A stretch of DNA of 64,000 nt from Apostichopus japonicus (Eukaryota > Echinodermata > Holothuroidea > Aspidochirotida > Stichopodidae): the NCBI RefSeq assembly GCF_037975245.1, contig NC_092572.1:4857501-4921500 (forward strand), written 5' to 3'. This document shows, piece by piece, positions 9,656-51,992 of this stretch; position 1 is the first letter of the stretch, and the number at the start of each line of letters is the position of its first letter. Position numbers and translations under genes: made by a program. The notes under the pieces were generated by a model. The model was not told the DNA's origin. It did not search any database and saw only the letters and a list, made by a program, of their open reading frames with translations.

Positions 9656-12101
9656 TTGAACAGGAACGTGCGCAACTTATAGAAATTTGTCAGAAGATGG
9701 ACATTTTTAAATTACCCATCGTCACACCGTAAGTACTTACATCTTCAGTAACCCGTCTTAATAACTTGCCTCTTATGTGTCATCTCCATCCCCATGCCTA
9801 CAGGTTTAAGTCCCAAAGTCTCGGTCTGTTAAGACAGTTACACCCATCTAAATTTTCACAAATTCTTCATAATAGTATGCTATAAATATACCGCCGTTTT
9901 CCTTTGTTGACGCTAGCGTTTATTTCGTTACTCATTCTTTTTATTCATTTGTCGGAAGCATACATAATTTATTTGATGATGGTGTCGTGTATGTGTATGT
10001 GTGTATCATTTAAGCAATTACTCACAAAGTATGTTATAGCTAATGTTGATGCATGGCATACATGGTATTGTCAAAGTGAATACAAGAAGCCTATTGAAAT
10101 TGGTCGATGTCAATGGACATGAGGTAAATACATGTCAAAGATTGAAAACCTTGTAAACACGATAACTCAAGAAGGACAACTTCGTTGAAGTTCACAGTTG
10201 GTGTGTAAATCACGCAAGTAAGCGTTAGAACCACATTGAGAATTGGAGGTCAAACGTAAGTTGATTTCAACCTAAGCGAAGTCAAAAATAGGCAAGCCTA
10301 GGTCGACTTTATACTTGGTATGTGGATTTACACTTGTGTGTACAACAAGCTGCTTCTATGAAGAACAAAGGTCATTCAAGGTCAATATACATAGCATACA
10401 ATATTGTACACACGATAACTCTGACATTAAAGCTTGGATTAACTTCATGGGTTTGTGGATCCAACTTAGTGAGTTCAATAAACTATAATACTTGAAACAG
10501 TCAACAGGTCCAGCAAACCTCTAGCACACTACTAGGATGCTATAAAATGTCACAACCGTTAATGGTGTTATTATCCAGAGATTCTCACTGACGATTTTTC
10601 AATTTATCACCACTTTGTTATTTACAGAAGTCACACATAAATTCATTGTCATCAGCAGCATCATCAATCCCGGCACACGCCGGATGAGCAAACTGAGTGC
10701 ATACCGTGCACTGAATCATGCCATCTTGCATGCTTTGGCTCCATAGCTTGCTGTAATCGATACACTCGGTATTGTTTGGTCATCTTCACCGGCATTGTCT
10801 AGTACTGAGTCGGCCTCACTTCTTACTGATCCACCGTTAGCATATTTGTTCCTTTAATAACAGTATTACTTAATAAATCACAGCATAACGTACATCCGTG
10901 ATCCAGGCGCTCGACCAAAGACCGTTCCAACGGGCCAATAGTCTATAACTCTATGGCCTGTGGATACACTCAATCGTGTAAACAGCGAGTAATAAAGCAA
11001 TAAATGAGCAAATAAGCACAAACAAACTAAGGATTCGAGTATATTTGCGAACGTGTTGAGAAGAATTCGGTCTAAACTGGAGCATTGTCGGCGGGGAAGG
11101 TGCCTCAGCTTCTGTGAAATTTTCTTTTTATGATTTTTTTTAATAAGCAATGTCTCCAGCGGCTATATGCGTTGTGTCCGACCACATTCTCCGTTACCAT
11201 ATATACTGTCTTGTAAACTTGACCTAATATTCTACTTTTTTTTGCCTTGTCTAGAGCTGAATATGGGCTGTTGCCCAGGTTTGTCGGTCAAGGCAACTGG
11301 GAGTGGCACGATATGAAGGTGGATTCTTCCAGAGTTGCTTTTAGCGGAAAAAGCGAAGACAAAGGGACAACATTCATAGACCTGTTTACATTAAATAATC
11401 CTGATTCTTCGCCTTCATTATTAATTCGGTTTTATTCTAAAGAATTCAAGAATCATTCAAAATGGCGGCCTCGTCATGTTTCATTCTTGGATGATTCTCG
11501 TATAGTCACTGTGTGTGAGAATCAGTTAGATGTCTTCAATATCAAGACAGACAACTTACCCACACACAGTGAGCTATTAGGTAATAGGGTAGCTTCGTGC
11601 ATAACTGTTAGAGAGCGAGAGATATTCATCGGCTGTTTGTTTTCTAACGAGGTGATTGTGTTTGATTTTAATTTAAATAAAATCAAGACAATCACCTTTA
11701 AACGATTACAAGAATATTATGGTAGTTCTGCAGATATAACAGTGCATGGAGATGATCTGTTTATATCTATAGACAATGACAGTGCTACCAGATACAACAT
11801 GGATGGAGTTATTGTACATAAATACAAGACACCAGACTACACACTTCCATACAGTATCACTGTAAGCAGTGAGTTTGGTCTGGTGTTTTTATCATGTCAT
11901 TTTTTCTTCCATGATGTTGTTGTCGTTGTTGTTTACTCTCTCTCTGAGGGTCATACATTGTTTACTTTCCGAGTTACTGATGGTTTTGCGAATAGAATCA
12001 GGATAAGCAGTGTAAACAGGTCTATGTTTACAGTAACAGAAGAAGGAATACTGGGTGTATACAGCACAGTAAGTACAGTAGGACAGTGTAAGAAAATGTA
12101 A
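9656..12101 (+). CDS. TRIM-like protein with C-terminal six-bladed beta-propeller, 3' part of gene
   Basis: Two exons are supported. Exon 9,656-9,728 follows TTTTGGTACAG and ends at GTAAGT; it encodes a short helical, charged segment (EQERAQLIEICQKM) like the end of a TRIM coiled coil. Exon 11,255-12,101 follows a pyrimidine tract and CTAG. The first exon ends with two bases of a codon and the second supplies the third base, so the frame continues without a break. The second exon encodes about 282 residues with six weak beta-propeller blades of the NHL/TRIM2-like kind, for example WHDMKVDSSRVAFSG, WRPRHVSFLDDSRIVTV and ANRIRISSVNRSMFTV. Six blades make a full propeller, so the stop TAA at 12,099-12,101 is probably the true end. 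In TRIM proteins this domain binds protein or RNA targets for an N-terminal RING ligase, but no RING or B-box is visible here, so ligase activity cannot be claimed. A donor-like CA|GTAAGT at 12,069 could instead splice out the last 11 codons. Confidence 0.65.
10618..10862 (-). pseudogene. Decayed DNA transposase tail with PHD-like zinc finger
   Basis: On the minus strand, inside the intron between the two TRIM-like exons, a frame ending at the stop in 10,618-10,620 encodes a zinc-finger-like segment: QCTVC, then HPAC, then EFMCDFCK and stop. A C-terminal finger of the form C-x2-C, H-x2-C, C-x2-C is seen at the end of many pogo/Tigger-type and other DDE transposases in invertebrates. Upstream on the same strand (10,740-10,862) a second frame is open and rich in Ser, Asp and Glu, and joins only by a frameshift. 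I see no DDE catalytic part. This is best read as a fossil fragment; the family is inferred. Confidence 0.4.
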
Positions 12102-14977: not shown

Positions 14978-15248
14978 GCATCCATGTTTACCTTCAGCAA
15001 TCTCAAAGAAGAACTGTCTTCAAGGCTCACCGAAACTGACTGTGGGAATTTAGGCCGCTACTTTTCACTACCACCTGATCAAGTGCAGACCATTATTACA
15101 AGTCCCTTGTACTCCAAGAAATTTCTGCTTGCCCTTGAAGAGAGAGGATACATACACCCTTCAAATGTGAATCGATTAACCGATGCTCTCACTGAGCTGA
15201 AGATCAACCATATTTACTTGTTAACAGAGACGTACATGAAGCTAAGAG
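14978..15248 (+). CDS. NLR gene exon 1: first DED-like domain
   Basis: The exon follows a strong pyrimidine tract ending CCATAG and ends at GAG|GTAGGA. The first in-frame ATG is at 14,984, but two codons before it are open, so a coding exon further 5' cannot be excluded. The roughly 88 residues look like a death-effector-type helical bundle: an LG-RYFSL helix, then FLLALEERGYI, then NRLTDALTELKINHIYLL. The F-LEE-G-I and L--AL--L spacing is typical of DEDs. Death-fold subtypes are hard to tell apart by eye, so DED rather than CARD or DD is a moderate call. It ends with one base of a split Asp codon. Confidence 0.6.
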
Positions 15249-18200
15249 GTAGGACCCTAATCATTACCTCTCTTTGTAATTTTGTATTTTGATTTACCCC
15301 TTGTAATTCCAAAGTAGAACTTGAAAAGTGTCTTGATCTCCATACATTATGGCGCAATGATCATACATATTTTCCTGTATATGACAAACCTCTTAATGCC
15401 AACTCGCCCAACCCCCCTCCCCTCCCTCGGAAAGATTCCCCTTTAAGCAATACATAACACCGGATCTTGATTAATCATAAATGTTGAAACCAAACTGTGT
15501 ACACCAATACACAGTATATGTATTAACGGCAATAAATCACTTTGTGCCATGATGTGTATAAATGCATAAATCAGAATGCCTGTTTGTCTTTGGATATTTA
15601 ACAACACTGGAAACTTCAATTTGATGTTTACCTTAAACATTTCAGATCAAGAGACTGAATACGATAGATTCCTCGCCACCCTCTCTGCTCATTTGACATT
15701 TTCCATAACGGAGAAACTGTGTGATAACTTTGAAGTTACTGATGAGAACAAGAAAACAGTTATCTCTAGTCAGAATCCAGGACTTTCCTTCCTCCTGAAA
15801 ATTGATAAGATGGGTATCATTAATCCTTCTGATGTCAGCAAATTAGAGACACCTTTAGAGGAATATCTTCTTCTCCAGGCAGTAGCGAAGATACACGAAT
15901 ACCAGTCCTTGGTACTTTCTGACAAATCTCAACCACAAGACGAAGGTATTGTAAATTCCTATGTACGTTACAAACTTTAAACTCCACTGGTACAAGTTTC
16001 ATGCCAGTTTTTAGGAACATACCTGACTTAAAGATTTCATAGCTCAAAAACAGATAAATACACAAATTGCACTAACTATCTTAAATAACAAATAGTTGCA
16101 ATACAAAATTAATTGAGAAATAATGGATGTCACAGGTACTTTTATTTTTTTTAAGGAAAAAGCCTATAGTTAAACTATAACAACTGGGATTTCTGTCTTT
16201 GAAAATCTCATATCATTGTGATTTTTTTTTGCATATACATGAACGTAGCATAACATCGTTTTATTGCATACTACTTTAAGATTTTTTTGCTATAGGATAT
16301 GAACATAAAATCGCATCGTTCAGATGACATACTACTTATAGTTAGTTGACTTTTGCAATTGGTACACTCTGTTATACAGCACACACCTACATCCTGACCA
16401 ACATATACATTGGATATCGGTGTAGAATCAATATCCCTAATTCAGCTATAATTCACTTTATCCCAAAATGTATTTATAAACGGAAACTCTTATCATTACA
16501 TGGCAGCTTTTGCAGCATTCAGGCAACACGTCCAGGACTCTGAGTCAAGCGTCTTCACTGATCAAAGTACAGCAGCTCCTCCTAAAAATTTTACTTACTT
16601 ACTTTGAAAAATTGACACACATTCTTATACACCTGGGTGTTACAAGATTCTGGGAATTTCCATCCTTTTTCCACTGAAGGTGTGACAGACTTAACCTTGA
16701 AGGTTCCACCACTATACATTGCTCCCTGAGATTATGTGACATTACTTCAGACACCGGAACTGGAGGTTAACCCATGGAAACACTCTCCTACCCCAAATTA
16801 TAAATACCACAGGGGATTAAACTAGACATCATGTGTGGAGGATTTCCTCTTCTAATCACACACATTTTGTTATTATTGTTGTTCGTATTACTGGTAACTG
16901 TTAAACTGACTAAGCATGTTTGAGCGTTTTCAGTGTATTAGTTTGTGTTGGAGTGAGCTTCCTTTACATTGGAAGATTATGAAAGACGTTATCAAAGAAA
17001 CAGTGTTACCAGATTATCCAAACTATAAACATCAAATTACATTTGCCTAACACCTTGGTAGATTTCTAGCATGAATTGTGAAACATTTCACCTTCTCGTA
17101 ATGGTAGTTGTGTTTCTGTATTTCTTGTTTTAAAGATAAAGTGAGCTTATTCATGAAATGCCTCCAACAGAAGATGAAGAGTTGGTTTGAAACCATGACT
17201 CCTGTCCCCTGGAAGAAGTCTTGTCAATGGAAATCAAAGGATCTATTTATTGCCAGCGGCTTAGTCTTAACAACTTTTGGTTCAAAAATATCTAGCAGAA
17301 AGGTTGACCGAAAATGTAAGCTACACTACCTAGATATCTTTACTGATGAAAGACTAAAATCAGAGACTCGAATCATTCTGGAAGGACATCCAGGGTCCGG
17401 CAAGACAATGCTCTCATCTCAGTTGGCCTATGACTGGTGTTGTGGGAAGCTTATGGATATCCCCCTGTTTATCTATCTGCCCTTAAAAATTGTTGCTGAC
17501 ATGACAATTGTTCAAGCTATCAAGTTCTTCTACATACGTAAATATATTCCCATCACAGAAGAGGATATTGAATCTATACTTACCAGTGGCAAGAAGAAAG
17601 TCTACATCATATTAGATGGGTTAGAAGAATACAATGGTGGACCCAAAGATGGAAGTCCCTCAGAAGTAATGAGAGTAATGACAAAGGAAAAACTGTCCAA
17701 CTGCATTGTTATAATCACAGCTAGGACAGACTATGCCAAGGATCTACCTCGAGGTCCACTGTTGACGATAGGAAGCTTTGGTGAGGATGAAAGGAATGAA
17801 TACATTGAAAAAGTCTTCTCTGATGATCAAAAAAGGCAAGAAGAAGTAAAGGAATTGATTGATAATGTTCCATTTATTATTGATCTTTGTGATGTTCCAC
17901 TGCTCTTTGTGTTGTTAGTACATAACATTGATAGATTAGAAAAGTTAAAAGAAGAACAGCTTGACAGAGTTACTCCTTTCGTGAAGGCCATTGTAGACAT
18001 TCTGTGTTCTGTGCAGGATGAGGAAGGCAACCATAGTCATCTGTCACACCAGAAAAAACACATTACTTTGGAGGAACTTGCATTTAACGGCCTCTGTAAA
18101 GGAAACCAACAATTGTTTTGGGAGAACGATTTTGTGGATAGATATGTCATTAATAGCAAAACGTGGATAGATTCTGGGATACTTGTTGTTGAGGAAGGAA

Positions 18201-21200
18201 CTCCATTAAATTCCTCTAGTAGAGATGTTCAGACTGACTCAGGCAGTGTAAGTCCCCAGATTGATACCATCAGTGATGAGTCACTGAACACATATAATGT
18301 TACTTCAGAGATAAAAAGAGAAGTATGCCCTGATCCTGATCTCTTGGCATCTGTCAATCAATCAGAGAGTACACCAATTTTGACATCAAAATTTTTACAG
18401 AGAGGGAAAGATCCGAAATATGTCTCTTTACAGGTTAAATTTCTTCATAAGTTAATCCAAGAGTGGTTTGCAGCAAATTATTTAGCTCTCTTGTTCTGGG
18501 GTCATAAATCAACTGAACAACATTACAAGTATCAATTGTTCAGAGAACACTTGGCTAAAATACACCCAGCTGATCTTCATTATATCTTGCGCTTCACCTG
18601 TCACATCTGTCCTCCTAGCTTTCACTTCATTGCCAGTTTTCTAATGAGAGACTTTAAAACAGGAGATGGTGAGATTCCTGATTACATCATGAACTGCATC
18701 TGTCTTTGTTTTGGTGAGCATAATGAGTACAAAGGACACAAGTTCAAGGACATTGCCACAGAGATCTGTAGACGAAAATCTGTCAACTTCAGCTTTGAAG
18801 ATAGTCGACTGATGCTGAGGTCAAAAGTTTCTATGTTGACCTTTGCTTCGAGATCAAAGGTACATTGACTTTTATGTTAACAATTTCTATTTTAAAAGTA
18901 ACTGCATATTCCTTGAAATTTGGTTGGATGAATATGCTTGATAAACATTTGAGCCTGCAGTGTCGCAAACTGTGCTTGAATGAATTCCCAGTAATATATA
19001 AGTCATTATGTTTGATGATCAAGTCAGTGTTGAATTGGTTCTCTTTGTGATTACATTTTGTACCCAGTCCTCTATTGCCATTGTACCTTCCGTTATTCCA
19101 AGGGACCTTTAACGTTCTCAAAGAGACCCTCTGGTATCTGTGAATACTGATGTCAGGTTTTAATGTGGGAAACACGCTGTTCCTTTTTAGGTTCCAGTAA
19201 AGCGACTAAAGTTTTCAGATGTGGTTGAAAAAGTTACAGACAAGGCGCTTGTCTTACAGGACGATGTATGGCTCGGTATATTAGAAACACTTGAGGCTAT
19301 TGAAATGGATCGATGGGACCAGACACTTACTGACAAAGATTATGAAGACCTCCTGAAATTCATTTCAAATTGTAAAAATGTTAATGCAGCATTGTAAGTA
19401 GAAATGTTATATCTTTTGTTTATTAAAACCATGAAGACAGAACTGAGAATACATACCTACATTTACATAGAGACAAGAATAGTTGACGATGAATATAAGT
19501 AAAGCCAACGGGAAAGAAATAGTAACTGTTGGTTTATTTCTGTCGGTCACACAGAGTTCATTTGTAACTGTTTCGTTGTTTACACAACGGACCAAACTAT
19601 TCATTCCTATTGAATCAAGATATAGAAAATATATGCAAATTCAATATTCCTTTATTAAATATATACGAAGCATGGAGTGAAATGAATAACTAAAACACAT
19701 GTTACAATATTTAACATTTGTTGCTAAGAATTTCTGTTTATAAGAACAGTGTCTGCACCAGCCATGTATTGTTTTTTTTTTCACTTTCTTTAACCATAGT
19801 TTACTCTTTCCAAGTCCACCGAAGGATGTGACAGATGACAAGATTCTGAAAGCCTTACAATCCCGAAATATTTTAGGTACAGTTTCGCTTGGCAATTAAC
19901 GAATACCATTTTTGTTTGGTTATGTAAATTAAGTCCCTTGGTAGCATGTTGTAGGTCAATTCTTATCACACAGTCAAAGGAAGTAATGTGTAGTCGACAT
20001 GACATTTAAAACAAGTGAAATCTACATTGGTCTTACATCTTTGTTTGAAGCACTTTGTAATGTACTCAAAGTATAGAGAAATAACTTGGATCAATTGAGC
20101 CTTGATTCCTTGTCAAAGGCAACACAAATCTGCACCATATGGATGGTGTTTATATGTGTGAAGTTAGAGCTATACTGATTTTGTGTTATCATTTGAGATA
20201 ACATGAGTTACAGCCTGAATACTTTGTAGAAATGATAAACTTCTCCAAAAGTACAGCGTCAATGAAATTAGGCATATGGCATATCGATTCACTTTACATT
20301 GTTGAGTGCAAGGACGCTTTTTGTTTTCTTTGTGGAGGTCAAAAGTCTGGAAATCTTGTCACAACAAAAACTCCAAGTGTAAAGGGTGGATAAATTTTGC
20401 ACTTCTATGTAGATCCATTTGAAAGTTATTTTCTGGATGGTTAATATGCTTGATAGAAAGAAGATTAGGAGAAAGATGAGACTGAGGCAATTTTTGGATT
20501 ATCTTTATCACTTACACTTAATTTCTACAGGCATAACAGTATTTCTCACAAATTGTTAAACAATTGTTATTTTTTCAACCAGATGTTTACCAAACATGTA
20601 GTTTCTTGCAGATCTAGTCTAGAACGAGATGTAACTGCAATTTTATGGAAACAAATTGTCACCATTTAGCGAATAGTAAATCATTTATTTAAGAGAATTG
20701 CAGTTCTTTTCGCAATCACCAAAACAGTTAAATGTGATCTAATATGCTCTTTGCAGTTGAATGGACCATTGGAGCAAACGCAATTCACACTTTAGATGTA
20801 CACACTGGAAAATGGCCGGTGAGACAAACATAATCTTTTGTTGTTTATGCCAAATAATAAAGTGTCATTTGTTAAAGTGAAAGTTTGAAAGCATTTTTCC
20901 ATCACATATTTGCTTGATTGTTGCTTTCGAGAATTTCTGTCAGTTACCAGCAAATCTAAATTGATAATCGTTTCTATTGTATTTATCTTGAATGATTTCT
21001 TCAACCAGATGGAGTTTAGACCACACAGTAGGAACTCTAATGAACCATCATCAACAAAAGCAGTTAAAGGTAACTTTATGATTCACAGTACCAAGGAGAT
21101 TGTTAGTGGAATAACTTTTTTTTAGAAAAGGCATCATGATTGACTTTATTGAAATGGAGTTTAGAAGAGTTTCAGAGTTTTACAAAGTAGACATTTTAAA

Positions 21201-24200
21201 AATATAATTGAAAATGTAATACTGTAGCAATGATGAACGGTGGAATAAAGTTAATAACAATGGCAGCACTCGCCTTTGATATAGTTTGTAGTTTACCAGA
21301 TAGGCTAATCTTCAGAGCCTGAAATCTTTGGGGATAAAAAATATAGATCCTAACCTTAGTGTGGTACAATCCAGGAAGAAAATGAATTAGGTCTTAGGAA
21401 GCATTTTGACACCAACAGAGCCACATGTAGAGACGCACTCAAGCTGTAAAGAAAATCCGAACAACTATAGTCTATGTGTAGTAACACCATAAACAGTGTG
21501 TATCATTATATTCAAGCAAACATGCAATGGCACATGACAATTTAGTTGTATCGAAGGGGAAACGGAAAGTGACATTGTGTGACCCTATTTTGTTATATTT
21601 CACATCTCTCTCATGCTCTGAGTTACCTAACATGATCAGCTGTGATTGTTCATATTGCATAAGCTGGATATTAACATATGTAGCACTGTATACTAGCAGA
21701 TATAATACCCTCTTTACCAGTTGTTAAGCATTGTTTTATGATATCTACGATGGTGCCTGAACATACAATATATGTGGGTCTCATACAAAACCATACATGA
21801 GGTGCACAGATGGTAAAGCTATGTCTAACTGTAATACTCAGCAAGTTTATGAATTTGAATTTGCATAATTGATATGAAAGCTAGTGCATTAATTAAATAA
21901 TAAGGTCAATGGCTCAATAAAGAGTTGTACTGACCATAAAGCTATAAAAACACACTTTAAAGAACAAATAAACATACTTTCTTGAGGCAACAGTGGTACT
22001 AGATCACACTATTTGATGTTAAACTATATGATAGGAGATTACTGGCATGTGTGTTTCTATTTAATTTGTGGTGATATTCATGATATTCTCTTTACACTCA
22101 TCAACATATATAGACTTGGACACATTTTTTAGCATAAAATCGTTGGTTAACATGAAAGGAGGTATTCTTGAGATACCAGGGACTGGCGTTAGACTAGAGA
22201 TTCCTACTGGTGCTATTGAACAGGAATGCTTGATCCAGATGAGAATCATACCAATCAGTTTTCAAGAAGAGTCTGAATCATCATTTACAAGTAACTCAAC
22301 AGTAGTAGTGGAACTTCTTCCTGATAATCTGAAGTTACATCAGTTAGCAAAACTCACCCTGCCTCACTGTCTGCAGTTTAAGAACACTGGTGGACGCAAA
22401 GCCATGGTGTACAGCAGTCACCATGCTAAAGGTACTGTTTATTTGTAGTGTGGGAACTCTGACTAAGCACACATGGACGAAACACCCCACCCCACAGTAT
22501 ATGCTTACTGGATGTATTGTTCTTTCCTGGTATGCAGTATCTGTCACACCTACCAAGACTATATTGGTGTGTGTGTGTTGCCTTTAGTGTTGTCAACACA
22601 CAACAGATAACTGAGAGTGTATTAGGTTTCATAATCTTGATGTATGCAGCAGTCTTCACATGTAGAAATATTTGCTTGCTAAATAATTGTACAAATTCAT
22701 TCTTACAGCAAAGATATGCAGAGCATATTTTAATGTTGCTAGCTAATGCAGCTGTCATCATTCCATACAAGTTATAAAGTTGACTTTCAGAAATAATAAG
22801 AATATAACATATCATCGCAATATTACTTAGTAGGTAACGGTGTTAATATAACCATCCTAATGAAACTTAACCATGTCTTCCATGGCATGAATATATGTCC
22901 TCAGCAGCTGCTTTTCCGCAATTAAACTCACTGCAAATACCACTGGGTTGCAAGCAAAAATTATTCTTGGAATACTCTATAAACAAAACTTCCGCATTAT
23001 CTGTAAAAGTGTGTGCTTGGGGAGAAATGAAAATTAAGAAATGACAATATCAACTTTTCAGGCTCCTGCTATATTTTGTTTTGATACAGGTTCTAAGCCA
23101 ATGTGGAGACCAAAACCTAATGTTTTGTATCAGGTGAATGACACAAACTGTGTAATCTGGATTGAAAGCTTTTCATGGGAGACATGTCAGATTGATGGCA
23201 AATATGTTGAATTTAAGCAGATCCAAGTCTATGCTGCTCGTAACCTGAACCCACTTTCTAAAATAATACCCATACATGTTGGCTTCTACCCTAAGCTGCC
23301 AGGTGAAAGACCGGTGAGTCAAAGAAAAGAGTTATCATTTGTTGCAATTAATTATTAGCTACTTCTCTTTGTAATGTAATGGTGTTAAGTAGTGTAATTA
23401 AACAGTGGTACAATAAAGCTGCTAAGACGTGGTTCAAGTTATTTGCAATGTTATTTATTATGAACACACACCAACTTTCATACCACACTTATTGTGCTAG
23501 TATCAATTTGCATGATGTCCATATGCAAGTATTAGTACAGGAAAACGAACATGAGTAGGAGTATGAGTTCAGAAAAAAACTGTATTACTGATTTAGGTGC
23601 TCTAATAAACAACACAAAAGTGTGATGTTTAATCTAGTTGGTCAGAATTTGCAAAGGAAACTTGTTCTTATTTGTGGGAAATTGATGGAAATCTCTTTCA
23701 GTAGATCTTTCGGTACATTATCAAGATCAATTTTCCATTTGGAGAGAAATTGCAGGCGGGAACGGGAAGGGACACCAGGAGAGGGGGTTCTGAGAGTAAT
23801 GCTTCCAAATTTGTAGCCCAGACAAGATATAATTAATAATTTCATATAATTAATATTGCAAAAAACGAATAGTAACATGCGATTTAACAAAAAGCCACTA
23901 ACACAGAGGAACAAGTTATTGGAAAGTTATACACCTTAATGACACCGAAAAGATTACAAAGACGCTTATAATAGCTACACTACAGTTGGTATAACATTTA
24001 GAAACTCGTAGTTTGGGAAAGAGGGAGGAGATTTTATGAAAGGCTGAAATATATGCGTTCGTGTGTGTTGGGTATGGGGGAGGGGGGAGCTCTTCTGATT
24101 ACCTGGAAGTGAAACATCTTTAATGGTGAAATGAGCCACAGTATGTGCTTGCACAAACATCTCTATATTAGAGAATTTTCCTATAGGTAGATAAGATAAC

Positions 24201-27200
24201 AAGATTTCACACTTGAACAGTGTTTAAAAGATGTCATAGTGCATTTCCTACAAGATTTTTTATTCACTTAATATTGTAATGATAATAATAACGATAACCA
24301 TAATGATAATGATGTTCCATAATGAAGTGTACACTAACTGTATGCAACATATTGTGACGTTGTTTGAAAGTAAAATATATGTAGCAAATGTATCCATACA
24401 GGATCAGAGTAATAATTGCAGTCATAATAAATATGGAAATAGACATCGGTGTTTGACTAAGAAAGTATGAGTACCAAGTCGTTAGTTCAACAAATGAGCA
24501 CAATGAGTATTAAGGGTACGGCAAAATGTACTCATGTGCTAATACAGACTCCGGTACTACAATGTTAAACATCCTTGTTGTCAAACATAAATTGGAGCGA
24601 TATAAAATACCTCTGCTCCCTTTGCTTACCTATACAGATAGGCCTCAAGGTATATGGGCAAATCTGCTTTTACCTCATAACATAGAAAAACTTGTTTACC
24701 AGCATAAATGGCAGAATAATATCTAGTAGGGATGAAATTTAATAGAGATTGAATCACAAGTACTAGGTCTAAGCATGTTAATTTTACATGGATGTATTGC
24801 CTATATCTGTTTGTTTCATTAATACTATTGTTGTTTTCCATCAAGAATAATTTGCAAATTTTAGAAGAAATTCCGTTCCTATTCCAAAAAGAAGGAAACT
24901 TGCCTTTGAAGATACTATTTAAGGAGGTAATGCCCATGTCCTGGAAATATACAGGAGAGGAAAAAGGAAAGGTGATGACCTCTGATTTCTTTCATGTTGA
25001 CCAATAAACACAGGTTTTTATTCATGTCTAGCTTTGGAATGACTGCATTCTTAACCAGCCTGTGTTTTGTAAATCTTTTGTTAATGTTGTTTAAATTCAT
25101 CATGCTTTCCACAAAGAATTATGATCATGAAGTGTTGTATGTTATGGAACGTTTGATGTATCATGCTATGTCATTCTTAACTCTGGATTTGGAATTGATT
25201 CTGTAACATGTATTTATATCCAAAGAAAAGTATTACGTTGGTTTTCATGGCTTGCATTGTTTTAAGCTCATTTGGCATGACCATCCAATAGAGCTAATGC
25301 CATAGCAAGGTGCATCTATCTGTCTGTAAATTTTTTGAAAGGTTGTTGCTTTCAGTCCATTTGCCCAAACCTGATAAAGATGTCCAAGTTGCTGCCCATG
25401 TCAGGGGCTCCATAAGCCTTACGTCTAAATTGGAGTAGGGCAAAGTTCATTTGAGGTTAAGGCAGGTACAAAGATAAAAACCTTTTAATGCTTCTCCTCC
25501 TTGGGTGTAATTCTGATCGTTTAAGTTTGGAGTTTATGGAGTAGTCGGTTGATGAGTGGGCACAAAAGTGTTACAAGGATAGGAGGCCAAAGGATGTTTT
25601 AATAAATAATTACAGAAAGTGAAATATTTTTCAAATGAATCTTCTCTATTTGGAATTAATATCATGACGCCAAATAGCAATAATCAATAATGTAAGGTCA
25701 AAGGTCATATGCAGCTATTAGCAACCAAAAGTAAGCATTCTTCAAACCTGCATATCTCCTAGATGCTTGTTCATATTTTCAGAAACGTTGATTTAAACAG
25801 TGATATCCCCAAACTTGCTACATAGGTAGGGAACCCCCCTCATCCCACCCTCTCCATGTTGTGCATGCCGTTGTGAGGTGGCACAATATTCAGTACAGCA
25901 GAATAATTCAGGGCATATCACATTGCACCAAAGCATTGTTGGCAGAATAAGATAAGTTACGCCCAGCGGTCAAATTGTGCCCCAGTTTGATGTGAGTTAA
26001 ATTGAAATTATTTTCAAGGGACGTTTATTGTAAGAACTCTTCCATAGGAATGGACTTAATTCAATCTGTGACTAAGTTGTTCTACATTAAGAGTTTTTTG
26101 CAATGCAGTGGACAGATTCCGAAAAGAAAACAATTGTCTGCACATATTTGGAGCCTTTTGGTGGGAAATGAGGGTAAGGGCAAATATTTCCCAGTGAAGC
26201 TGACCATTTTACCTCCAAAGGAAATATTTACTTTGATAGTTTCAGACAGGCTCCTATAATCTGAAGAGGACAAACAGTAGTATCTCAAATCGGTTTGCTA
26301 TCTGTGTACACAAAGAGAAGATGGTTTTTGAAACTTTATAGTCTTAAAATGTAGTCACTTTGCCAAAGTCTCTCTTTGAAAGCTGGTATTGTTGAGGGAA
26401 GCACAAACATAACTGTCACTTCAGAATAATAAATATTTGTGTTTAACATATTTAGAATAAAGCAACCTTCCCTTATCACATGACTAACAATTAATTTCAG
26501 CTGCAGATAATTCCTTTCTTGAACGTAGCAGCCAACGTGGACTGTCGGTGTTCATTTGTCTTTATGAAGGTTGGAGAAGAAGAATGTATTTTAGACTTTG
26601 AAGCTACTCAGGAAGATCCAGTACATTTGATTGTCCAGTTGAAGGTTTGTAAACATTTATAGATTCATTTTGCTGTTAAATTATCACTTGACAATATTAT
26701 CAGCTGTCTTTGTGAATTCTTTTACTTTTGTTGGTTAAGTTACACATTTACTTAAATATAAAACTATTGAATATGTTCCGCCTCAGTGCATGCACATCAA
26801 TGAAGAACAACGTATATTTTCATTCAGTAAGCAATTAAGGCTATAAAGTATTATTCTAATAATTATGCTATGATCTATGTATGCTTGAAGTAAGGTCTTT
26901 AACTACACATATTGTTATCACACCCTAACCCATAGTGTTATGGGAATGAGATATTTTACCCTATTAACCTTTTTGGTTCGTTGCTGGAAGCAAAGGAATA
27001 TATTACGTCAGGTTAGCGTGTGGTTGGTGTGTGTGTGACACCCTAGCTTTTAACATGATTTTACAAGATAGGTAACTTCTGCAGTTCTCATATTTTGATC
27101 TTGGCTTCCCCATGTTTAGTGCAAGAATTGTAATGTTTTTGGTGGAGGTCATTTGTGGTCAGCAGAGGGCAAAATGTGAAATCTAAAATTTCCAGAACCT

Positions 27201-28382
27201 GAACATCAAAGGAGGTTATACATGCATGGTAGGATATCCATTTTTAGTGTAAAGTTTTAGAGACTTTGGAGTAGGTCACAGTTCATTTAAGGTCACCAGG
27301 GGTCAAAATTTGAAATCTTTATATACATAATGTCTCCCAATAGAGAACTGTATTGGTTCTCATACTTAGCATTTGTCTTTCATATATTGAGTACAAGAAC
27401 CATATTAGTTTGAGTGGAGGGCAAAAGTCATTTGGGGTCAACTGAGGTCCAAATGTCAAATATTAAAAATACTGTATCTTGAGAATTTTTCCTTCAAAAA
27501 TAGAAAAATACAAACTTTCTAAAGGTCAGGTCTCAATGAAGATGTAAGACTTATTCTGATTTGACTTCCCCATATGTAGTAGAACCTATTTGCAGTTTTA
27601 TTTGGAGGTCAAAGGTCAGCTTAGGTACATGCAATATGGACTTAAGCCAGGGTCAGCTGGCAAACAAATCTTGTGCTGAAGATGTAATGTAAAGGCAAGT
27701 AACCACTGGGAAGGGTTTCCCTCCGGTTGAGATAACCATTTGTCAAAGTATAACAATATTTAAGAATGGTAAATCTGAAAACTTGGATAAGTTTCATAAG
27801 TGCGTGTGGATTCATTCTGGAATCTTAAATCCTTGTAAGCACATGTTTTTGGAGTTTACAGTGATAGTTCCTGTTTTATGACGTTGACCTCTGGTGAACT
27901 CAAGGACCTTTGACCTCTGTACAGATTGATAGGATTCAAAATATGGGTAACTTCAGCAGTAAAGTTTGCCTGAACTTATGTATCCTTTCAGTTGTACTCC
28001 AATCGTAAAGGTTGATTGAATTTGCTCAAGTGCAATAATAAAAAAAGTGGGGGGTCTTTTGAGGTCAACAGTGGTCAAAGTATGAAAATCTTGTGAATTT
28101 ACCAGTGGTCAAAACTTTCAATCTTGTCTACAGTGTTGCATTAAATATAATTAATTGTGGCATATAAGGATAACTTTTAAGCCCAATTATGGTTACTTTT
28201 TTACTAGTTAATATCGTAATACTCTGTGTCTAGCCTCATTTCAACATATATAATTGCAGGACGTTTCAGCATCATCCCTCTCAGGCATTTCTGTGCCACC
28301 ACAGGCAGCAGATGTCCCACACCCAAAGAAGAGACGATTAAATGAATCTACAGTTGCAGCAATGGTAAAGTTCAGATATCAA

Positions 28383-28462
<80 letters not shown>

Positions 28463-31400
28463 CTTCACTTGAATAAAGAAACATTAATTTGTGACTTGAT
28501 TTGACTTGCAAGAAAATCAAATGACTTGTGATAGACTTGACCTGCTGAAATAAAATTTACCTGTGACTTGCCTTGAATTGAGACACATTGACTGGTGTAA
28601 AGTAGTCACGTGACTTGGATACAACGCTGGATATCAAACTTTAAAGTGAAGGTCCATGTTTAACATATCTATGTAGGATTTTCCTGTTTTCTGATATTAG
28701 GATGGAGTGGAAGATTATGCAGCTCTCAGTTATCATAATGTAGTCGATGCGGGACTATCTCAGTCACCAAAGAAGACTTGTGCTGAAAGTCTAACTGTCA
28801 AACAACCCCTAGTTAACATTGATTTGGAAGTCAGAACAGAAATGTTCAGGGTAATAATTTACATACACAAGATTATGCTGTCTTGGCAAACATTCTTTTT
28901 AGAGCATATTACACAAATTAATGTTTAGTGAAATACTATATACAAACAAAATGTTCAATCAATCAGCTAAACATTTTCCCTAGATACGAATCATATGAGC
29001 TTTCTGGTTCTCAACTATCTCCTTTTCCATTTCTTTCTCACAGAATCCTTCTTTACCATCTCATCAAGCAATCAGAGGAGAAGCCAAAGGGAACCCAGTA
29101 GAAGCTGAAGCAATGACAATAGATAGCGAAGTAGTGAAAAATCAAACTCTGCTGGTAAGTATTAGTGAGTGAGAACTCCCAAATACGATTCATGACTTTT
29201 GAATCAGCGATTTCTAAATGACTGATTCAGACTGACTGCTAAATTGAGACAATCGTAATTGATAACATGTTTTTTTCAGTCACTTGAAGCCGACATTTAG
29301 ACATTACTGAAAGCTATATTTGCTAGACTAAGGTTTCATGTTGAATACATATAACATCTATAAACATCCCACAAAATATCAGAAAGTACACATAAATTAT
29401 TGCCCTATGTGCTTCCTTTTGTTTTTAAGAAGTAATAGCATGCATATTAATGAGAAAGCGAAGCATATTAACAATAATACTATTGCAATATAAATGTTTG
29501 TTATCTTTCATATTTGGCATGTTTGTATTGTTAGTAAGTGTTTATGCGCTTGTGTTATTAAATTATTGAAAAAAGGCTGAAACCATTATGCAAATGGTAG
29601 ATGGGATTTGATGTTACTTTATAGCTTCTGCTGCCAAATTGGAAAATTCTTTTGAAAGTTTATCAGTAGGTAGTGCATGAAATTATTAGAAAAAGCTATT
29701 TATTTTGGAACCAAAAATCATATCTGAGACAAACTTTGACGTATTTTGCCTTATTTGCCTGAAACACTCACATGAGGTTACACCAAAATGTCAACCACAG
29801 TCTTGCAGTACCTATGTTACATGGTTGCTGATCTTAGCATTGTATTGAAGGTGTTTAGAAGGACGTTGTGCATCTGACGTATTCTCAATTACCACATGCA
29901 GTGCTGCAGGAGCCACTGTCATACTTAACTGAACAATGATGTAACAGTTTGTGCTAATGTGACAGTGGTAACTGATATGTTCCGTACCTGGCATTAAAGG
30001 CTTAATTTTAACATGGAACTGCAACGGTCTAGACAGCTTGGATTGTTCTCTTGAAAAGAATAATATTGCTTTATTTTGTTGTCCCACAAAACATATATAC
30101 ACAATAATGGAATCTTTTAAAGTTTTGCAAGGAACAATGTTCAGTTTGTTGGGATTGACTTTAATGTTATAATGGCGTAATCTACATCAATCTGTTATAT
30201 TTGTAAGCGATTATGTAATATATGCTCTGTGTGGAAAATGTCCGCCAGCCAAAAACCATTAAATAATAACCACCTGAAATACCTAGAAAAATACCTGTCT
30301 TAACAGATAAAGTATTAACTACAAGCACATCGGTAGTATTGAGATTCTGCAGCATTTTTCCTGTATGCTTTCAGTTTCCTGTGTCAACCCTTCATCTGAG
30401 TTTACCACTCTTTTTCTCATTAACACCTGTTTGACAATTTTTGTTTGCAAATCTGTGTCTATTAAATTATGTGTCTATTTGTGTCAAAGTCACACTTTTC
30501 GCACAAAATTGCTGCTGTTACCATGGACAATTGTAGCTTTTGTCAAGCATATTAATGATTTGATGTGGCAAAATGAAATGATAGCCCTTTAACTGTGTAG
30601 TACACAACTAATTTTCATTAAAAGTATATGATATGAGCATTTGCCTCATTATTGTTCTAGCTTTTAACCATCCACTGAGGTTTTTATATGGATTAGCTCA
30701 ATTTCAATTGGAATCATGAGATAGTATCAGAACAATGAAACGAAACATTTTGTTCTTTTGTTATTTCAAGAACTTGTCAGGAACTTTTTCCAAAGAATGG
30801 CGGGATGTGGGAAGAAAACTGAAGCTTGATGAGACAGACCTTGACAACATAGAGGCGGATAACAAAAGTAAGGGACAAAAAGAAGTGGTTTACCAGCTGC
30901 TGTTACTATGGAAACGGAAAAATGGGATGGAAGCAACAAAAAAAACACTGAGAGACGCTCTTAAAGCAGCTAATCGAAAGGACCTGTCCGATTATCTTCT
31001 CAATAGGGAACAATGTGGAACAACGTCAGGTAAGTCAAAGACAACAAAACCATGAGATCATTATGGAAGATTATGTTTTTCTTGTGTTATATTTACACAA
31101 TACAGTTGTGCATTCTATAGCCAACATAATATGAAAAGGAAATTAGCCTGTAGAAAGAACAATTAACATTACGTATAAAAAACCGACATTCAGCAATAAG
31201 CTCAATGTAAGTCTTTAAGCAATTTTCCATGGAAGCATGAGAAGCAAAACAATGTGCAGATTGTCAAATAGCAAGCAGCTGCAATTGTCATTGAATATTA
31301 GATTATTAAGTTACTATTATAATAGTACTGCAGTTTCCTTCAATAAAACAACACTTATATGAGTCTTACTGTTGTTTGGAAGGATTTAAACTTTGATTTC

Positions 31401-31570
31401 CACTTTCGAATGACCAGGCAATTGTTTTACATTTCTGTATGATCTTATTTGAAAGCTCTTCTTGGAATTTTAATTCTACTTTAGAGGTTATTCTATAAGT
31501 AAAAACAGGAAATAACCCTACACATTTATATCCGTGATATTGCCATATCTTACACCTCACAGATGATTGA
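14984..31570 (+). CDS. NLR-like protein DED-DED-NACHT-ZU5-UPA-death domain (NLRP1/PIDD-like layout)
   Basis: Sixteen coding exons on the plus strand: 14,978-15,248, 15,646-15,945, 17,136-18,859, 19,191-19,393, 19,800-19,876, 20,757-20,818, 21,009-21,069, 22,114-22,431, 23,090-23,313, 24,846-24,971, 26,501-26,644, 28,260-28,364, 28,701-28,850, 29,044-29,154, 30,771-31,029 and 31,563-31,570. Each has an AG acceptor and GT donor, all junction phases agree, and from the ATG at 14,984 they give 4,137 nt, that is 1,378 codons and a stop. Rough residues: two DED-like folds 1-188, NACHT 189-763, linker 764-897, ZU5 898-1003, UPA 1004-1168, linker 1169-1290, death domain 1291-1376. NACHT NLRs are cytosolic sensors that oligomerise with ATP; ZU5-UPA (FIIND) self-cleaves in NLRP1, CARD8 and PIDD1; death folds recruit caspases or adaptors. 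These roles are known for the families and inferred here. No LRRs are visible. Two genes meeting near 21-22 kb remain possible until a transcript is seen. Confidence 0.75.
15646..15945 (+). CDS. NLR gene exon 2: second DED-like domain
   Basis: The exon starts after AACATTTCAG with two bases that complete the split Asp codon and ends at GAAG|GTATTG with one base. The 100 residues repeat the plan of exon 1: FLATLSAHLTFSITEKL, then FLLKIDKMGIINPSDVSKLE, then a Leu-rich last helix. The same phase (1-1) and similar pattern suggest exon duplication. Tandem DEDs occur in caspase-8, caspase-10 and c-FLIP, where they drive filament assembly; a similar role is inferred. Confidence 0.55.
16516..16566 (+). 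CDS. Possible optional linker exon in intron 2
   Basis: After CTTTTGCAG a 51 nt stretch is open in the right phase (1-1) and ends at CAAA|GTACAG. It would add 17 polar residues (with QDSESSVFTDQ) between the second DED and the NACHT exon. Including or skipping it keeps the frame. Support is only splice-site quality and phase. Confidence 0.2.
17136..18859 (+). CDS. NLR gene exon 3: NACHT ATPase with winged-helix part
   Basis: A single exon of 1,724 nt encodes about 575 residues. Walker A is GHPGSGKTML (about residue 272), Walker B is VYIILDGLEE (about 344), followed by the sensor-like IIITARTD, and near residue 627 the LIQEWFAANYLALL helix that marks the C-terminal part of NACHT modules (the usual form is QEF-AA-YL). 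These are intact, so nucleotide binding is likely. Before Walker A lies a linker with paired Trp residues. The exon ends in phase 0 at AAAG|GTACAT. It belongs to the STAND class of P-loop NTPases, as in animal NLRs. Residues around 430-470 form a Ser/Asp-rich insert that looks disordered. Confidence 0.88.
19191..21069 (+). CDS. NLR gene exons 4-7: linker between NACHT and ZU5
   Basis: Four short exons (19,191-19,393, 19,800-19,876, 20,757-20,818, 21,009-21,069) carry about 134 residues. Each acceptor is good (TCCTTTTTAG, TTAACCATAG, CTCTTTGCAG, TTCAACCAG) and the phases 0-2, 2-1, 1-0 and 0-1 join without stops. The first exon is helical and acidic; exons 5-6 contain LKALQSRNILVEWTIGANA, a mixed alpha/beta pattern; exon 7 is Ser/Asn-rich and probably flexible. 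I see no leucine-rich repeats, which most NLRs carry at this point. The fold is not recognised. Confidence 0.6.
22114..22431 (+). CDS. NLR gene exon 8: ZU5 domain
   Basis: The exon follows CAACATATATAG, opens with two bases finishing an Asp codon, and ends at AAAG|GTACTG with one base. Its 106 residues carry the ZU5 signature GGILEIPGTGVRLEIPTGAI and later AKLTLPHC, both at the usual spacing. ZU5 is found in ankyrins, UNC5, ZO-1, PIDD1 and the FIIND of NLRP1/CARD8. The exon ends in SSHHAK; the two His residues lie 31-32 positions before the candidate cleavage serine in the next exon. In human NLRP1 a His needed for self-cleavage lies 27 positions before its serine, so one of these could play that part (inference). 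Confidence 0.85.
23090..23313 (+). CDS. NLR gene exon 9: start of UPA with SF|S self-cleavage-like motif
   Basis: The exon follows TTTTGATACAG and ends in phase 0 at CCG|GTGAGT. It encodes about 75 residues. Near its middle is VIWIESFSWETC: a hydrophobic strand running into S-F-S-W (codons for F and S at 23,170-23,175, about residues 1031 and 1032 of the protein). In the FIIND of NLRP1 and CARD8 the backbone is cut between F and S of a conserved SF/S, and PIDD1 has HFS followed by W at its sites. The position after ZU5 and the flanking W match that pattern. UNC5 and ankyrins keep the fold but are not known to cut. Confidence 0.75.
24846..26644 (+). CDS. NLR gene exons 10-11: rest of UPA domain
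   Basis: Exons 24,846-24,971 and 26,501-26,644 are both phase 0-0 and total 90 residues. Together they follow the UPA pattern of UNC5 proteins: an L-L-I-F--V-P-SW segment (LKILFKEVMPMSWKY), then IIPF, then RCSFVFMKVGEEECILDFEA, matching the UNC5 order of an L-L-L-D-P--HW segment, EIPF and C-FTLER. An earlier donor at 24,927 (GAG|GTAATG) is also in phase 0 and would remove part of this pattern; the later donor at 24,972 is preferred because it keeps it. Confidence 0.7.
25241..28130. repeat. Intronic dispersed repeats with GGAGGTCAAAGGTC words
   Basis: The introns around exon 11 (about 25,241-25,990 and 27,000-28,130) contain many variants of the word GAGGTCAAAGGTCA and GGTCAACAGNGGTCAAA, separated by similar spacer text about every 100-150 bases. 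A related piece lies near 20,330-20,380. These look like old copies of one dispersed repeat with an internal periodic structure. No coding capacity was found. Confidence 0.55.
28260..29154 (+). CDS. NLR gene exons 12-14: linker with nuclear-signal-like motif
   Basis: Three phase 0-0 exons (28,260-28,364, 28,701-28,850, 29,044-29,154) give 122 residues, mostly polar and without a recognised fold. Exon 12 has PHPKKRRLN, which fits a monopartite nuclear localisation signal (K-K/R-x-K/R). If the protein is cut at the SF|S site, this linker is part of the C-terminal fragment. All three exons could be skipped singly without changing the frame, so splice variants are easy to imagine. Confidence 0.6.
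28387..28458. repeat. (AT)n microsatellite
   Basis: An almost pure AT dinucleotide run of about 70 bases lies just after the exon 12 donor. Open frames across it are artefacts of the repeat. Confidence 0.95.
29760..30600. repeat. Diverged repeat shared with the 5' flank of the NLR gene
   Basis: 29,760-30,040 and 30,310-30,350, in the intron before the death-domain exon, resemble 13,640-13,950 and 14,510-14,560 in the same order and orientation. The shared words include GTAGTATTGAG followed by CTGCAGC or TTGCAGC, and GTCTAGACAGCTT. This may be a plain transposon family or a segmental copy (see findings). Confidence 0.45.
30771..31029 (+). CDS. NLR gene exon 15: death domain
   Basis: The exon follows TTTTGTTATTTCAAG and ends at CAG|GTAAGT with one base of a split codon. 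Its 86 residues have the death-domain pattern of UNC5, ankyrin and PIDD1: EWRDVGRKLKLDETDLDNIE, then QLLLLWKRKNG with the conserved Trp, then LRDALKAANRKDLSDYLL. Six helices can be drawn. Death domains join other death domains (for example PIDD1 with RAIDD). Here it would be the C-terminal effector of the cleaved fragment, in the place of the CARD of NLRP1. Confidence 0.85.
31563..31570 (+). CDS. NLR gene exon 16: last two codons and stop
   Basis: After TTACACCTCACAG, two bases complete an Asp codon, followed by one more Asp and TGA at 31,568-31,570. The protein then ends TTSDD. If the exon 15 donor is not used, the reading frame instead runs about 9 residues further to a stop at 31,053-31,055; the strong GTAAGT favours splicing. 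Confidence 0.5.
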
Positions 31571-51815: not shown

Positions 51816-51992
51816 ATAGCAGTGTGAAGTGGAAGTAGTACAGAGTGTACAGTACTACAGTGGCAGTAAAACTGGTTATAATTGCGTTGCGGAACTTGGT
51901 GGGACTACAATGATATAAATTATCGAATTGTGAAGGTACCTGCAAGTAGTATTACAGTAGCGTGTCGGGGATGTCGCCAAGCCCTTGATTAA

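What the first reader, a model, noticed from the sequence alone, without database searches (positions are those of the whole stretch)
14984..31570. NLRP1-like invertebrate NLR built from DED-DED-NACHT-ZU5-UPA-death domain
Seen: 16 exons with matching phases give one 1,378-codon frame that holds intact Walker A and B motifs, a ZU5 signature, a UPA pattern and a death domain. Known: human NLRP1 is PYD-NACHT-LRR-FIIND-CARD, with FIIND made of ZU5 and UPA, and PIDD1 has ZU5-UPA before a death domain. Inferred: this gene joins the two plans, a NACHT sensor with a PIDD-like self-cleaving module and death-domain output. It may represent an ancestral or convergent route to FIIND-type sensors. I do not recall such a protein being described outside vertebrates, but I could not search.
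Basis: partly seen in the sequence, partly recalled or inferred. Interest (0 to 1): 0.92.

Follow-up and report, generated by a model that had tools for sequence, protein, structure and literature searches.

The report
Likely self-cutting immune sensor gene family
This window holds one intact member of a large family of sea-cucumber-like immune genes that join an ATP-driven sensor to a module that probably cuts itself to release a cell-death signalling tail, as the human NLRP1 sensor does.

Summary
The gene is real. Fifteen in-phase exons were found. Pfam confirms NACHT (1e-16), ZU5 (2e-8) and Death (3e-13). The two N-terminal modules are DED-like but sub-threshold, and UPA is not recognised by Pfam.

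The own genome holds 50 related NACHT exons. 46 of 50 have the DED-like exon upstream, 42 of 50 a same-strand ZU5 downstream, and 33 of 50 ZU5-UPA-DD first. Linker exons between NACHT and ZU5 are conserved in phase, so DNA supports one gene.

New point: a predicted self-cleavage site. F-[S/C]-W stands in 40 of 40 readable copies: S in all 22 linked to a family NACHT; S in 6 and C in 12 of the others. CARD8/NLRP1 cleave at F/S here, UNC5B has Leu, and one of this genome's two UPA-positive genes has Leu-Gly, the other Phe-Thr.

It is not an NLRP1 orthologue: no LRR, no FIIND match, a death domain instead of CARD. NACHT-ZU5 proteins are already reported from sponges and cnidarians. Cleavage is inferred, not shown. 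Genome statistics match Apostichopus japonicus.

The parts
14978..15248 (+). exon 1: first DED-like death-fold module; the ATG at 14984 is probably not the family's start
   Evidence: acceptor and coding sequence conserved in paralogues; Pfam DED sub-threshold; six predicted helices at low confidence
15646..15945 (+). exon 2: second DED-like module
   Evidence: 50 genomic matches, itself included; exon 1 and exon 2 families match each other
17136..18859 (+). exon 3: NACHT NTPase
   Evidence: Pfam NACHT 1.1e-16; 50 family members, itself included
17384..17407 (+). Walker A GHPGSGKT
   Evidence: read
17606..17629 (+). Walker B IILDGLEE
   Evidence: read
19191..19393 (+). exon 4: region after NACHT, no LRR
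   Evidence: conserved in paralogues, dN/dS 0.13-0.32; no Pfam match
19800..19876 (+). exon 5: linker exon
   Evidence: 100% and 58% identical in two paralogues, splice sites kept
20757..20818 (+). exon 6: linker exon
   Evidence: 95% and 65% identical, splice sites kept
21009..21069 (+). exon 7: linker exon with a donor leading to ZU5
   Evidence: 80% identical in one paralogue; 37% (E 0.34, weak) in the other; splice sites present in both
22114..22431 (+). exon 8: ZU5
   Evidence: Pfam ZU5 2e-8
22419..22424 (+). His-His pair (SSHH), candidate catalytic histidine
   Evidence: 18 and 19 residues after the LPHC histidine; CARD8 H252-H270 spacing is 18; second His in 21 of 21, first in 19 of 21 copies read
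23090..23313 (+). exon 9: end of ZU5, predicted cleavage site, start of UPA-like region
   Evidence: 85 genomic matches, itself included
23170..23175 (+). Phe-Ser, predicted self-cleavage site ESF|SW
   Evidence: F-[S/C]-W in 40 of 40 readable copies
24846..24971 (+). exon 9b: middle of UPA-like region
   Evidence: 88% and 57% identical in two paralogues
26501..26644 (+). exon 10: end of UPA-like region
   Evidence: 25 genomic matches, itself included; its acceptor was not seen at the same place in the two paralogues
28260..28364 (+). exon 11: linker, poorly conserved
   Evidence: 70% in one paralogue, no match in the other
28701..28850 (+). exon 12: linker, poorly conserved
   Evidence: 72% in one paralogue, 32% (E 0.29) in the other
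29044..29154 (+). exon 13: linker; its clear match lies before a death domain of the 80% type
   Evidence: 69% at C12:31010796, none in the 33.50-Mb copy
30771..31055 (+). exon 14 (terminal): death domain and stop
   Evidence: Pfam Death 2.9e-13; best solved match RIPK1 death domain 2.5e-7
31342..31347 (+). AATAAA polyadenylation signal

Best explanation
The gene encodes a NACHT (STAND ATPase) immune receptor without LRRs, presumably cytosolic, one of about 50 related copies in a sea cucumber genome. Its C-terminal half is a ZU5-UPA-death-domain module. After folding, the serine of ESF|SW attacks the bond before it, helped by the SSHH histidine, and splits the chain into DED-DED-NACHT-ZU5 and UPA-DD, which stay bound together (inferred from CARD8/NLRP1). 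When the N-terminal part senses a pathogen or is destroyed, UPA-DD is freed, clusters, and recruits death-domain adaptors of the FADD/RIPK1 type for inflammatory or death signalling. Shown here: the exons, their order, their selection and the conserved motif. Inferred: cleavage, release, partners and trigger.
For: One gene: 15 in-phase exons. Linker exons 5-6 are conserved with their splice sites in two paralogues; exon 7 is clear in one and weak in the other, with splice sites in both. 42 of 50 related NACHTs have ZU5 downstream on the same strand, against 0 of 50 upstream and 0 of 26 distant NACHTs. 33 of 50 have ZU5-UPA-DD first.

Selection: dN/dS 0.13-0.79 in exons 2, 3, 4, 8, 9 and 14, and 0.20-0.40 in those exons against the most diverged copy compared.

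Cleavage: F-[S/C]-W in 40 of 40 readable copies at a mean pairwise identity of 46%. CARD8 is cut between F296 and S297, and NLRP1 needs S1213 (PMC3210808, parts 1-3 of 5 read). Rat NLRP1 is cut at F968/S969 and needs H942 (PMC8081665, passages). UNC5B, non-cleaving as far as I recall, has Leu at the F position, and one UPA-positive gene of this genome reads QLG. The second residue varies only between S and C, both nucleophiles. SSHH: second His in 21 of 21 copies read, first in 19 of 21.

Signalling: the death domain's best solved match is RIPK1, then THOC1 and FADD.
Against: No transcript or protein evidence was available. F and W are not the only invariant columns of exon 9: P, W, C, V, G and Y at six other columns are also 40 of 40, so F and W could be structural. 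The cleavage histidine is 31 or 32 residues before Ser, not 27 as in CARD8/NLRP1. The CARD8 Glu279 equivalent is not evident in the window, where by my count Trp-Arg stands. Pfam FIIND and UPA do not match. A second UPA-positive gene of the same genome has HFT at this place, so F plus a nucleophile is not unique to this family. 16 of 50 copies have a death domain before any scored ZU5. Exon 10 has dN/dS 0.68 and 1.13, its acceptor is not at the same place in two paralogues, and 5 of 25 copies carry a stop in it. DED identity is sub-threshold.
Confidence: 0.6

Rival explanations
1. The ZU5-UPA-DD part is a non-cleaving, UNC5B-like closed module that hides the death domain, and the NACHT part opens it by ATP-driven shape change.
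For: UNC5B is the best solved match of the ZU5 profile, E 2.3e-6. Pfam FIIND does not match. The His-Ser spacing is four or five residues longer than in CARD8/NLRP1. Other exon-9 columns are as invariant as F and W.
Against: F-[S/C]-W stands in 40 of 40 copies, where UNC5B has Leu and one of this genome's two UPA-positive genes has QLG.
Confidence: 0.21
2. Two neighbouring genes: a DED-DED-NACHT gene and a separate ZU5-UPA-DD gene, wrongly joined.
For: In 16 of 50 copies a death-domain exon comes before any scored ZU5. In the copy at C12:30995392 no ZU5 match lies between exon 6 and the first death domain, over 11 kb without N. 107 of 150 scored ZU5 places are not the nearest downstream ZU5 of any NACHT listed.
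Against: Linker exons between NACHT and ZU5 and their phase-matched splice sites are conserved in two paralogues, exon 7 weakly in one. 33 of 50 copies have ZU5-UPA-DD first.
Confidence: 0.08
3. Alternative 3' ends: the same DED-DED-NACHT front is spliced either to a death domain alone or to ZU5-UPA-DD, giving non-cleavable and cleavable forms. The window copy has only the second.
For: Exon 6 ends in phase 0 as do the linker exons before the death domain, and exon 7 to ZU5 is phase 1, so both routes stay in frame. Of 50 copies, 9 read DD-ZU5-UPA with or without a further DD, 3 DD-UPA-DD and 1 DD-UPA.
Against: Only deduced from exon order; no transcripts. The window itself shows a single cassette.
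Confidence: 0.08
4. A decaying copy or receptor decoy without signalling.
For: 5 of 25 exon-10 places carry a stop, none of them the window's; exon 10 shows dN/dS up to 1.13.
Against: All 15 exons of the window copy are open, Walker motifs are intact, and dN/dS is below 1 in exons 2, 3, 4, 8, 9 and 14.
Confidence: 0.03

Closest known systems
NLRP1 / CARD8 (FIIND = ZU5-UPA, then CARD)
   Same: NACHT (NLRP1) followed by ZU5 and a death-fold tail; F/S cleavage motif; a histidine 18 residues after the conserved ZU5 histidine, as H252-H270 in CARD8
   Different: no LRR found, no PYD found, death domain instead of CARD, no Pfam FIIND match, His-Ser spacing 31-32 not 27, conserved Glu not evident
PIDD1 (LRR-ZU5-ZU5-UPA-DD, HF/S cleavage; plan partly recalled)
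   Same: ZU5 and UPA-like region followed by a death domain, F/S motif
   Different: NACHT and DED-like front in place of LRR; one ZU5, not two
UNC5 (ZU5-UPA-DD, closed module)
   Same: single ZU5-UPA-DD order; best solved match of the ZU5 profile
   Different: NACHT and DED-like front; F-S instead of UNC5B's Leu at the site
NACHT-ZU5 proteins of sponges, cnidarians and other early-diverging animals (PMC12909245, PMC8260672, passages)
   Same: NACHT and ZU5 in one protein
   Different: the passages read give no death-domain order, no cleavage motif and no function; relatedness could not be tested
Echinoderm death/DED-NACHT NLRs (Chiridota heheva; PMC8913654, passages)
   Same: N-terminal death/DED with NACHT; in that sea cucumber only 1 of 53 NLRs has LRRs
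   Different: ZU5 is not mentioned in that main text (0 hits)

Membership tests
NLR (NACHT plus LRR) | NACHT NTPase domain | tested here: met
   Pfam NACHT 1.1e-16 over cut-off
NLR (NACHT plus LRR) | LRR repeats after NACHT | tested here: not met
   no LRR family at E up to 1 in the 1342-aa model or in the region between NACHT and ZU5 exons
NLRP1/CARD8 FIIND proteins | Pfam FIIND match | tested here: not met
   none in the ZU5-UPA region at E up to 10 nor in the genome (no control genome rang, so the genome result is weak)
NLRP1/CARD8 FIIND proteins | F/S cleavage motif at the end of ZU5 | tested here: met
   ESFSW in the window; F-[S/C]-W in 40 of 40 copies
NLRP1/CARD8 FIIND proteins | catalytic histidine (CARD8 H270, NLRP1 H1186) | tested here: inconclusive
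   SSHH at the right distance from the LPHC histidine, but 31-32 instead of 27 residues before Ser
NLRP1/CARD8 FIIND proteins | CARD at the C-terminus | tested here: not met
   Pfam Death 2.9e-13; CARD_2 only at E 0.067 below cut-off on the same stretch
NLRP1/CARD8 FIIND proteins | actual autoproteolysis | not testable with these tools
   needs expression
PIDD1 | two ZU5 domains after LRRs | tested here: not met
   one ZU5 stretch in the model, no LRR
UPA domain (Pfam PF17217) | Pfam UPA match after ZU5 | tested here: inconclusive
   no match at E up to 10; the genome search rings in two other genes only; profile comparison with those two aligns 27 columns, E 0.014 but probability 3%
Death domain (PF00531) | Pfam match | tested here: met
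   2.9e-13
DED (PF01335) | Pfam match over cut-off | tested here: inconclusive
   E 0.45 in the window protein, 11.2 bits against cut-off 35.9; 5 of 14 family modules match at E up to 1, best 0.0014; low-confidence single-sequence models, no trusted structural match
UNC5-type ZU5 | Leu at the position of the cleavage Phe (UNC5B) | tested here: not met
   Phe in 40 of 40 copies; UNC5B Leu677; this genome's two UPA-positive genes have Leu and Phe

The most novel reading that the evidence does not exclude
An invertebrate has built, on a scale of about 50 genes, NLR-type receptors that work by self-cleavage and release of a death-domain fragment, a principle that I recall only from NLRP1 and CARD8 among NLR-linked sensors. 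In this NACHT family the nucleophile is Ser in every copy read, while ZU5 relatives away from the family use Ser or Cys. Tandem 3' cassettes add cleavable and non-cleavable outputs to the same sensor front.
Probability: 0.45. Interest if true: 0.82.

Novelty: new variant of a known kind. Interest (0 to 1): 0.63.

Why it matters
As far as I recall, NLRP1 and CARD8 are the NLR-linked sensors known to act by self-cleavage and release of a C-terminal fragment, and it is open whether that principle is a vertebrate invention. A multigene family in an echinoderm with NACHT, ZU5, a UPA-like region and a death domain, and with F-[S/C] in every copy read, makes the question directly testable by expressing one domain and looking for two bands. 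It would also show how an animal sensor without NLRP1's LRR or CARD (none found in this model) could be wired to death signalling.

Tried and rejected
Chance joining of unrelated exons: rejected by order, strand and phase conservation.

Pfam FIIND and UPA as proof of the module: no match. Profile comparison of the UPA-like region with two UPA regions of the same genome was not convincing, and a PDB search with it found nothing relevant.

Structure prediction of exons 1 and 2 as single sequences: mean pLDDT 56.3 in both, and structure searches gave no trusted match. MC159 (a DED protein), the FADD death domain and the p75 death domain appear only at noise level. The DED profile finds the Pelle death domain at E 0.03 only. 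Sequence search of exons 1-2 against the PDB: nothing.

My first read of minus-strand loci was in the wrong orientation; one search replaces it. My first gene model missed exon 24846-24971, so searches used a model without it; one search adds it. A first set of DED comparisons returned nothing because of a wrong option and was repeated.

Species: not given. Total 671.58 Mb in 35 contigs and a largest contig length seen of 46.04 Mb, against 671.60 Mb, 34 scaffolds and pseudo-chromosomes up to 46.02 Mb reported for A. japonicus (PMC10344927, passages). This is an inference.

Rows dropped before counts: of 107 rows, 50 were taken as family members and 26 as more distant NACHTs; the other 31 are further pieces of the same genes. 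Of 136 death-domain rows 102 were given; of the 34 left out, I checked 7 on contigs C10, C12 and C16, and none lies within 45 kb downstream of a family NACHT. Of 85 exon-9 places, 40 were readable in fetched DNA. Of 21 joined ZU5-exon-9 proteins, 11 went into alignment A1. Searches score only the best candidates (one search scored 150 of 204, 77 of 612, 150 of 219, 150 of 158), so counts are lower bounds.
Full report
WHAT IS THERE. The window lies in a 671.58-Mb animal genome of 35 contigs, at C12:4857501-4921500. [quoted passage not shown] PMC10344927, passages), so I take the organism to be that species. This is an inference.

GENE MODEL. From the sequence I rebuilt the exons. Fourteen exons with GT/AG sites and matching phases came first. 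A fifteenth (24846-24971) was found later and is 88% and 57% identical in two paralogues. Together they encode 1384 residues. That last exon is not needed: the death-domain exon continues to a stop at 31055, an AATAAA lies at 31342, and the same C-terminal peptide occurs in a paralogue. An upstream first exon was not found.

DOMAINS. Pfam gives NACHT 1.1e-16, Death 2.9e-13 and ZU5 2e-8, all over their cut-offs, on a 1342-residue model that lacked exon 24846-24971. No LRR appears. DED is sub-threshold in the window (E 0.45), and 5 of 14 modules of the family match it, best 0.0014. Exons 1 and 2 match each other across the family, so they are a tandem pair of one fold. Single-sequence models show six helices for exon 1 and five for exon 2, at low confidence, so 'DED-like' is as far as I go. 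UPA is not matched by Pfam at E up to 10, although the same Pfam model rings in two other genes of this genome. The region's position after ZU5, its length with the extra exon, and shared anchors with a UPA-positive protein of the same genome (a forced alignment) fit UPA, but no test was convincing.

ONE GENE AND A LARGE FAMILY. A search of the genome with the NACHT exon gave 107 rows: 50 family members (the window and others at 42-86% identity), 26 more distant NACHTs, and 31 further pieces. A same-strand ZU5 follows within 25 kb in 42 of 50; none lies upstream (0 of 50), 1 of 50 has one on the opposite strand, and 0 of 26 distant NACHTs have one downstream. Of 66 further Pfam NACHT rows, 2 have one downstream (one of these is in fact a family member), 4 upstream and 1 opposite. 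The second DED-like exon lies within 12 kb upstream in 46 of 50. The first downstream features are ZU5-UPA-DD in 33, a death domain in 16 and nothing in 1. Exons 5 and 6, between NACHT and ZU5, are conserved with splice sites at the same phase in two paralogues (NACHT exon 84% and 61% identical). Exon 7 is 80% identical in one and only 37% (E 0.34) in the other, but has splice sites in both. By eye, the ZU5 acceptor sits 6 nt earlier, in the same phase, in both. dN/dS is 0.13-0.79 over exons 2, 3, 4, 8, 9 and 14, and 0.20-0.40 in those exons against the most diverged copy compared. For exon 10 it is 0.68 and 1.13, on 48 and 45 codons, and its acceptor is not at the same place in the two paralogues, so exon 10 is the least secure part of the UPA-like region.

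THE CLEAVAGE SITE. Exon 9 reads ESFSW. Of 85 exon-9 places 40 were readable in fetched DNA, and all 40 have F-[S/C]-W: 28 S, 12 C. All 22 copies that follow a family NACHT within 45 kb have S; the 18 others have S in 6 and C in 12. Six other columns are also invariant in 40 of 40, so invariance of F and W alone does not prove catalysis. The residue before F varies freely. In CARD8 and NLRP1, cleavage is at F/S; Ser is essential, Phe and a histidine are important, and the residue before Phe matters little (PMC3210808, parts 1-3 of 5 read). Rat NLRP1 needs H942 and is cut at F968/S969 (PMC8081665, passages). Here an SSHH pair lies 18 and 19 residues after the conserved LPHC histidine, as H270 lies 18 after H252 in CARD8, but 31-32 residues before Ser instead of 27. 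In 21 copies with both parts read, the second His is kept in 21 and the first in 19. UNC5B has Leu at the Phe position, and the profile alignment to UNC5B ends at that column with Leu. Of the two UPA-positive genes of this genome, which I take as UNC5-like, one reads QLG and the other HFT; the second is a caution. Frames of another ZU5 type on C11 and C23 show no F-S/C pattern by eye; I did not align them.

MECHANISM. The best reading is a NACHT sensor with a self-cleaving, non-covalently held UPA-death-domain tail, as in NLRP1/CARD8, with DED-like modules in front. Shown: exons, order, selection, motif. Inferred: cleavage, association, release by sensing or by destruction of the front, clustering of UPA-DD, and recruitment of death-domain partners. 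The death domain's best solved match is RIPK1, E 2.5e-7, then THOC1 and FADD.

COMPLICATIONS. In 16 of 50 copies a death domain comes before any scored ZU5. In the copy at C12:30995392 I read the DNA: exons 4-6, then no ZU5 match for 11 kb, a linker exon and a death-domain exon ending as in the window, and only then ZU5 and exon 9. So either 3' cassettes are alternative, or in those copies the ZU5 part is a separate gene. The window copy itself looks mosaic: its ZU5 and exons 9, 9b, 11 and 12 match the copy at C12:33.50 Mb, whose death domain is only 50% identical, while its exon 13 and death domain match the copy at C12:31.00 Mb at 69% and 81%.

WHAT IS KNOWN. NACHT-ZU5 proteins are named for early-diverging animals (PMC12909245 and PMC8260672, passages). 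TRADD-N proteins with FIIND or UPA-ZU5 are known in marine invertebrates and were predicted to self-cleave (PMC8195603, passages). ZU5 as an autopeptidase of bacterial toxins, and an expanded ZU5 group in sponges, are described in PMC3482391 (passages). NLR expansion in A. japonicus is known, as 'NLR family CARD domain-containing' genes (PMC5638244, passages). Chiridota heheva has 24 NLRs with N-terminal death/DED (PMC8913654, passages). None of the passages read describes this full order with a cleavage motif. The library lacks most subscription papers, so this is no proof of novelty.

VERDICT. A real member of a large gene family with all found exons open, and a new variant of a known kind. 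Its NLRP1 membership does not. Its functional analogy is strengthened by the conserved site.

CHANGE AT CHECKING. The odds of the best reading went from 0.62 to 0.60, the UNC5-like rival's from 0.20 to 0.21 and the two-gene rival's from 0.07 to 0.08, because of the other invariant columns, the insecure exon 10 and the weak exon 7 match in one paralogue.

Noticed in passing
own genome C12:24.77-25.27 Mb, minus strand: ZU5 places lie about 12-27 kb upstream on the same strand of several ordinary NACHT exons (4 within 25 kb), the reverse order of the family studied here; exon-9 copies read on the minus strand of this stretch are F-C-W. Possibly a second ZU5-NACHT design.
   Followed up: partly
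own genome, exon-9 copies: The putative nucleophile is Ser in all 22 NACHT-linked copies read and Cys in 12 of 18 unlinked ones: a natural Ser/Cys swap.
   Followed up: partly
own genome, 5 copies on C12 (31439655, 31545321, 31750898, 33508812, 33964026): Exon 10 carries one in-frame TAG in the aligned stretch; these copies may lack the death domain or use another splice site.
   Followed up: no
L009 (C15:2416967): A 711-residue open frame with a hydrophobic stretch, ZU5 and UPA has HFT, a Phe followed by another possible nucleophile, where UNC5B has Leu.
   Followed up: no
L029, L031 (C23): A DED-like frame precedes a ZU5 of another type without the histidine pair (by eye); many ZU5 places lie on C15, C19 and C23.
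   Followed up: no
window 50131-51854: Long tandem-repeat frames (SAVSSGDGSGGNSDHNSAGDASGSNAV-like units) in a stretch of high GC skew; no Pfam match for the 50778-51815 frame.
   Followed up: no
window 58843-59271, minus strand: C-type lectin exon (Pfam Lectin_C 3.2e-5).
   Followed up: no
window 11223-12101: 292-residue open frame with propeller-like repeats by eye, just before the gene; no significant Pfam match.
   Followed up: no
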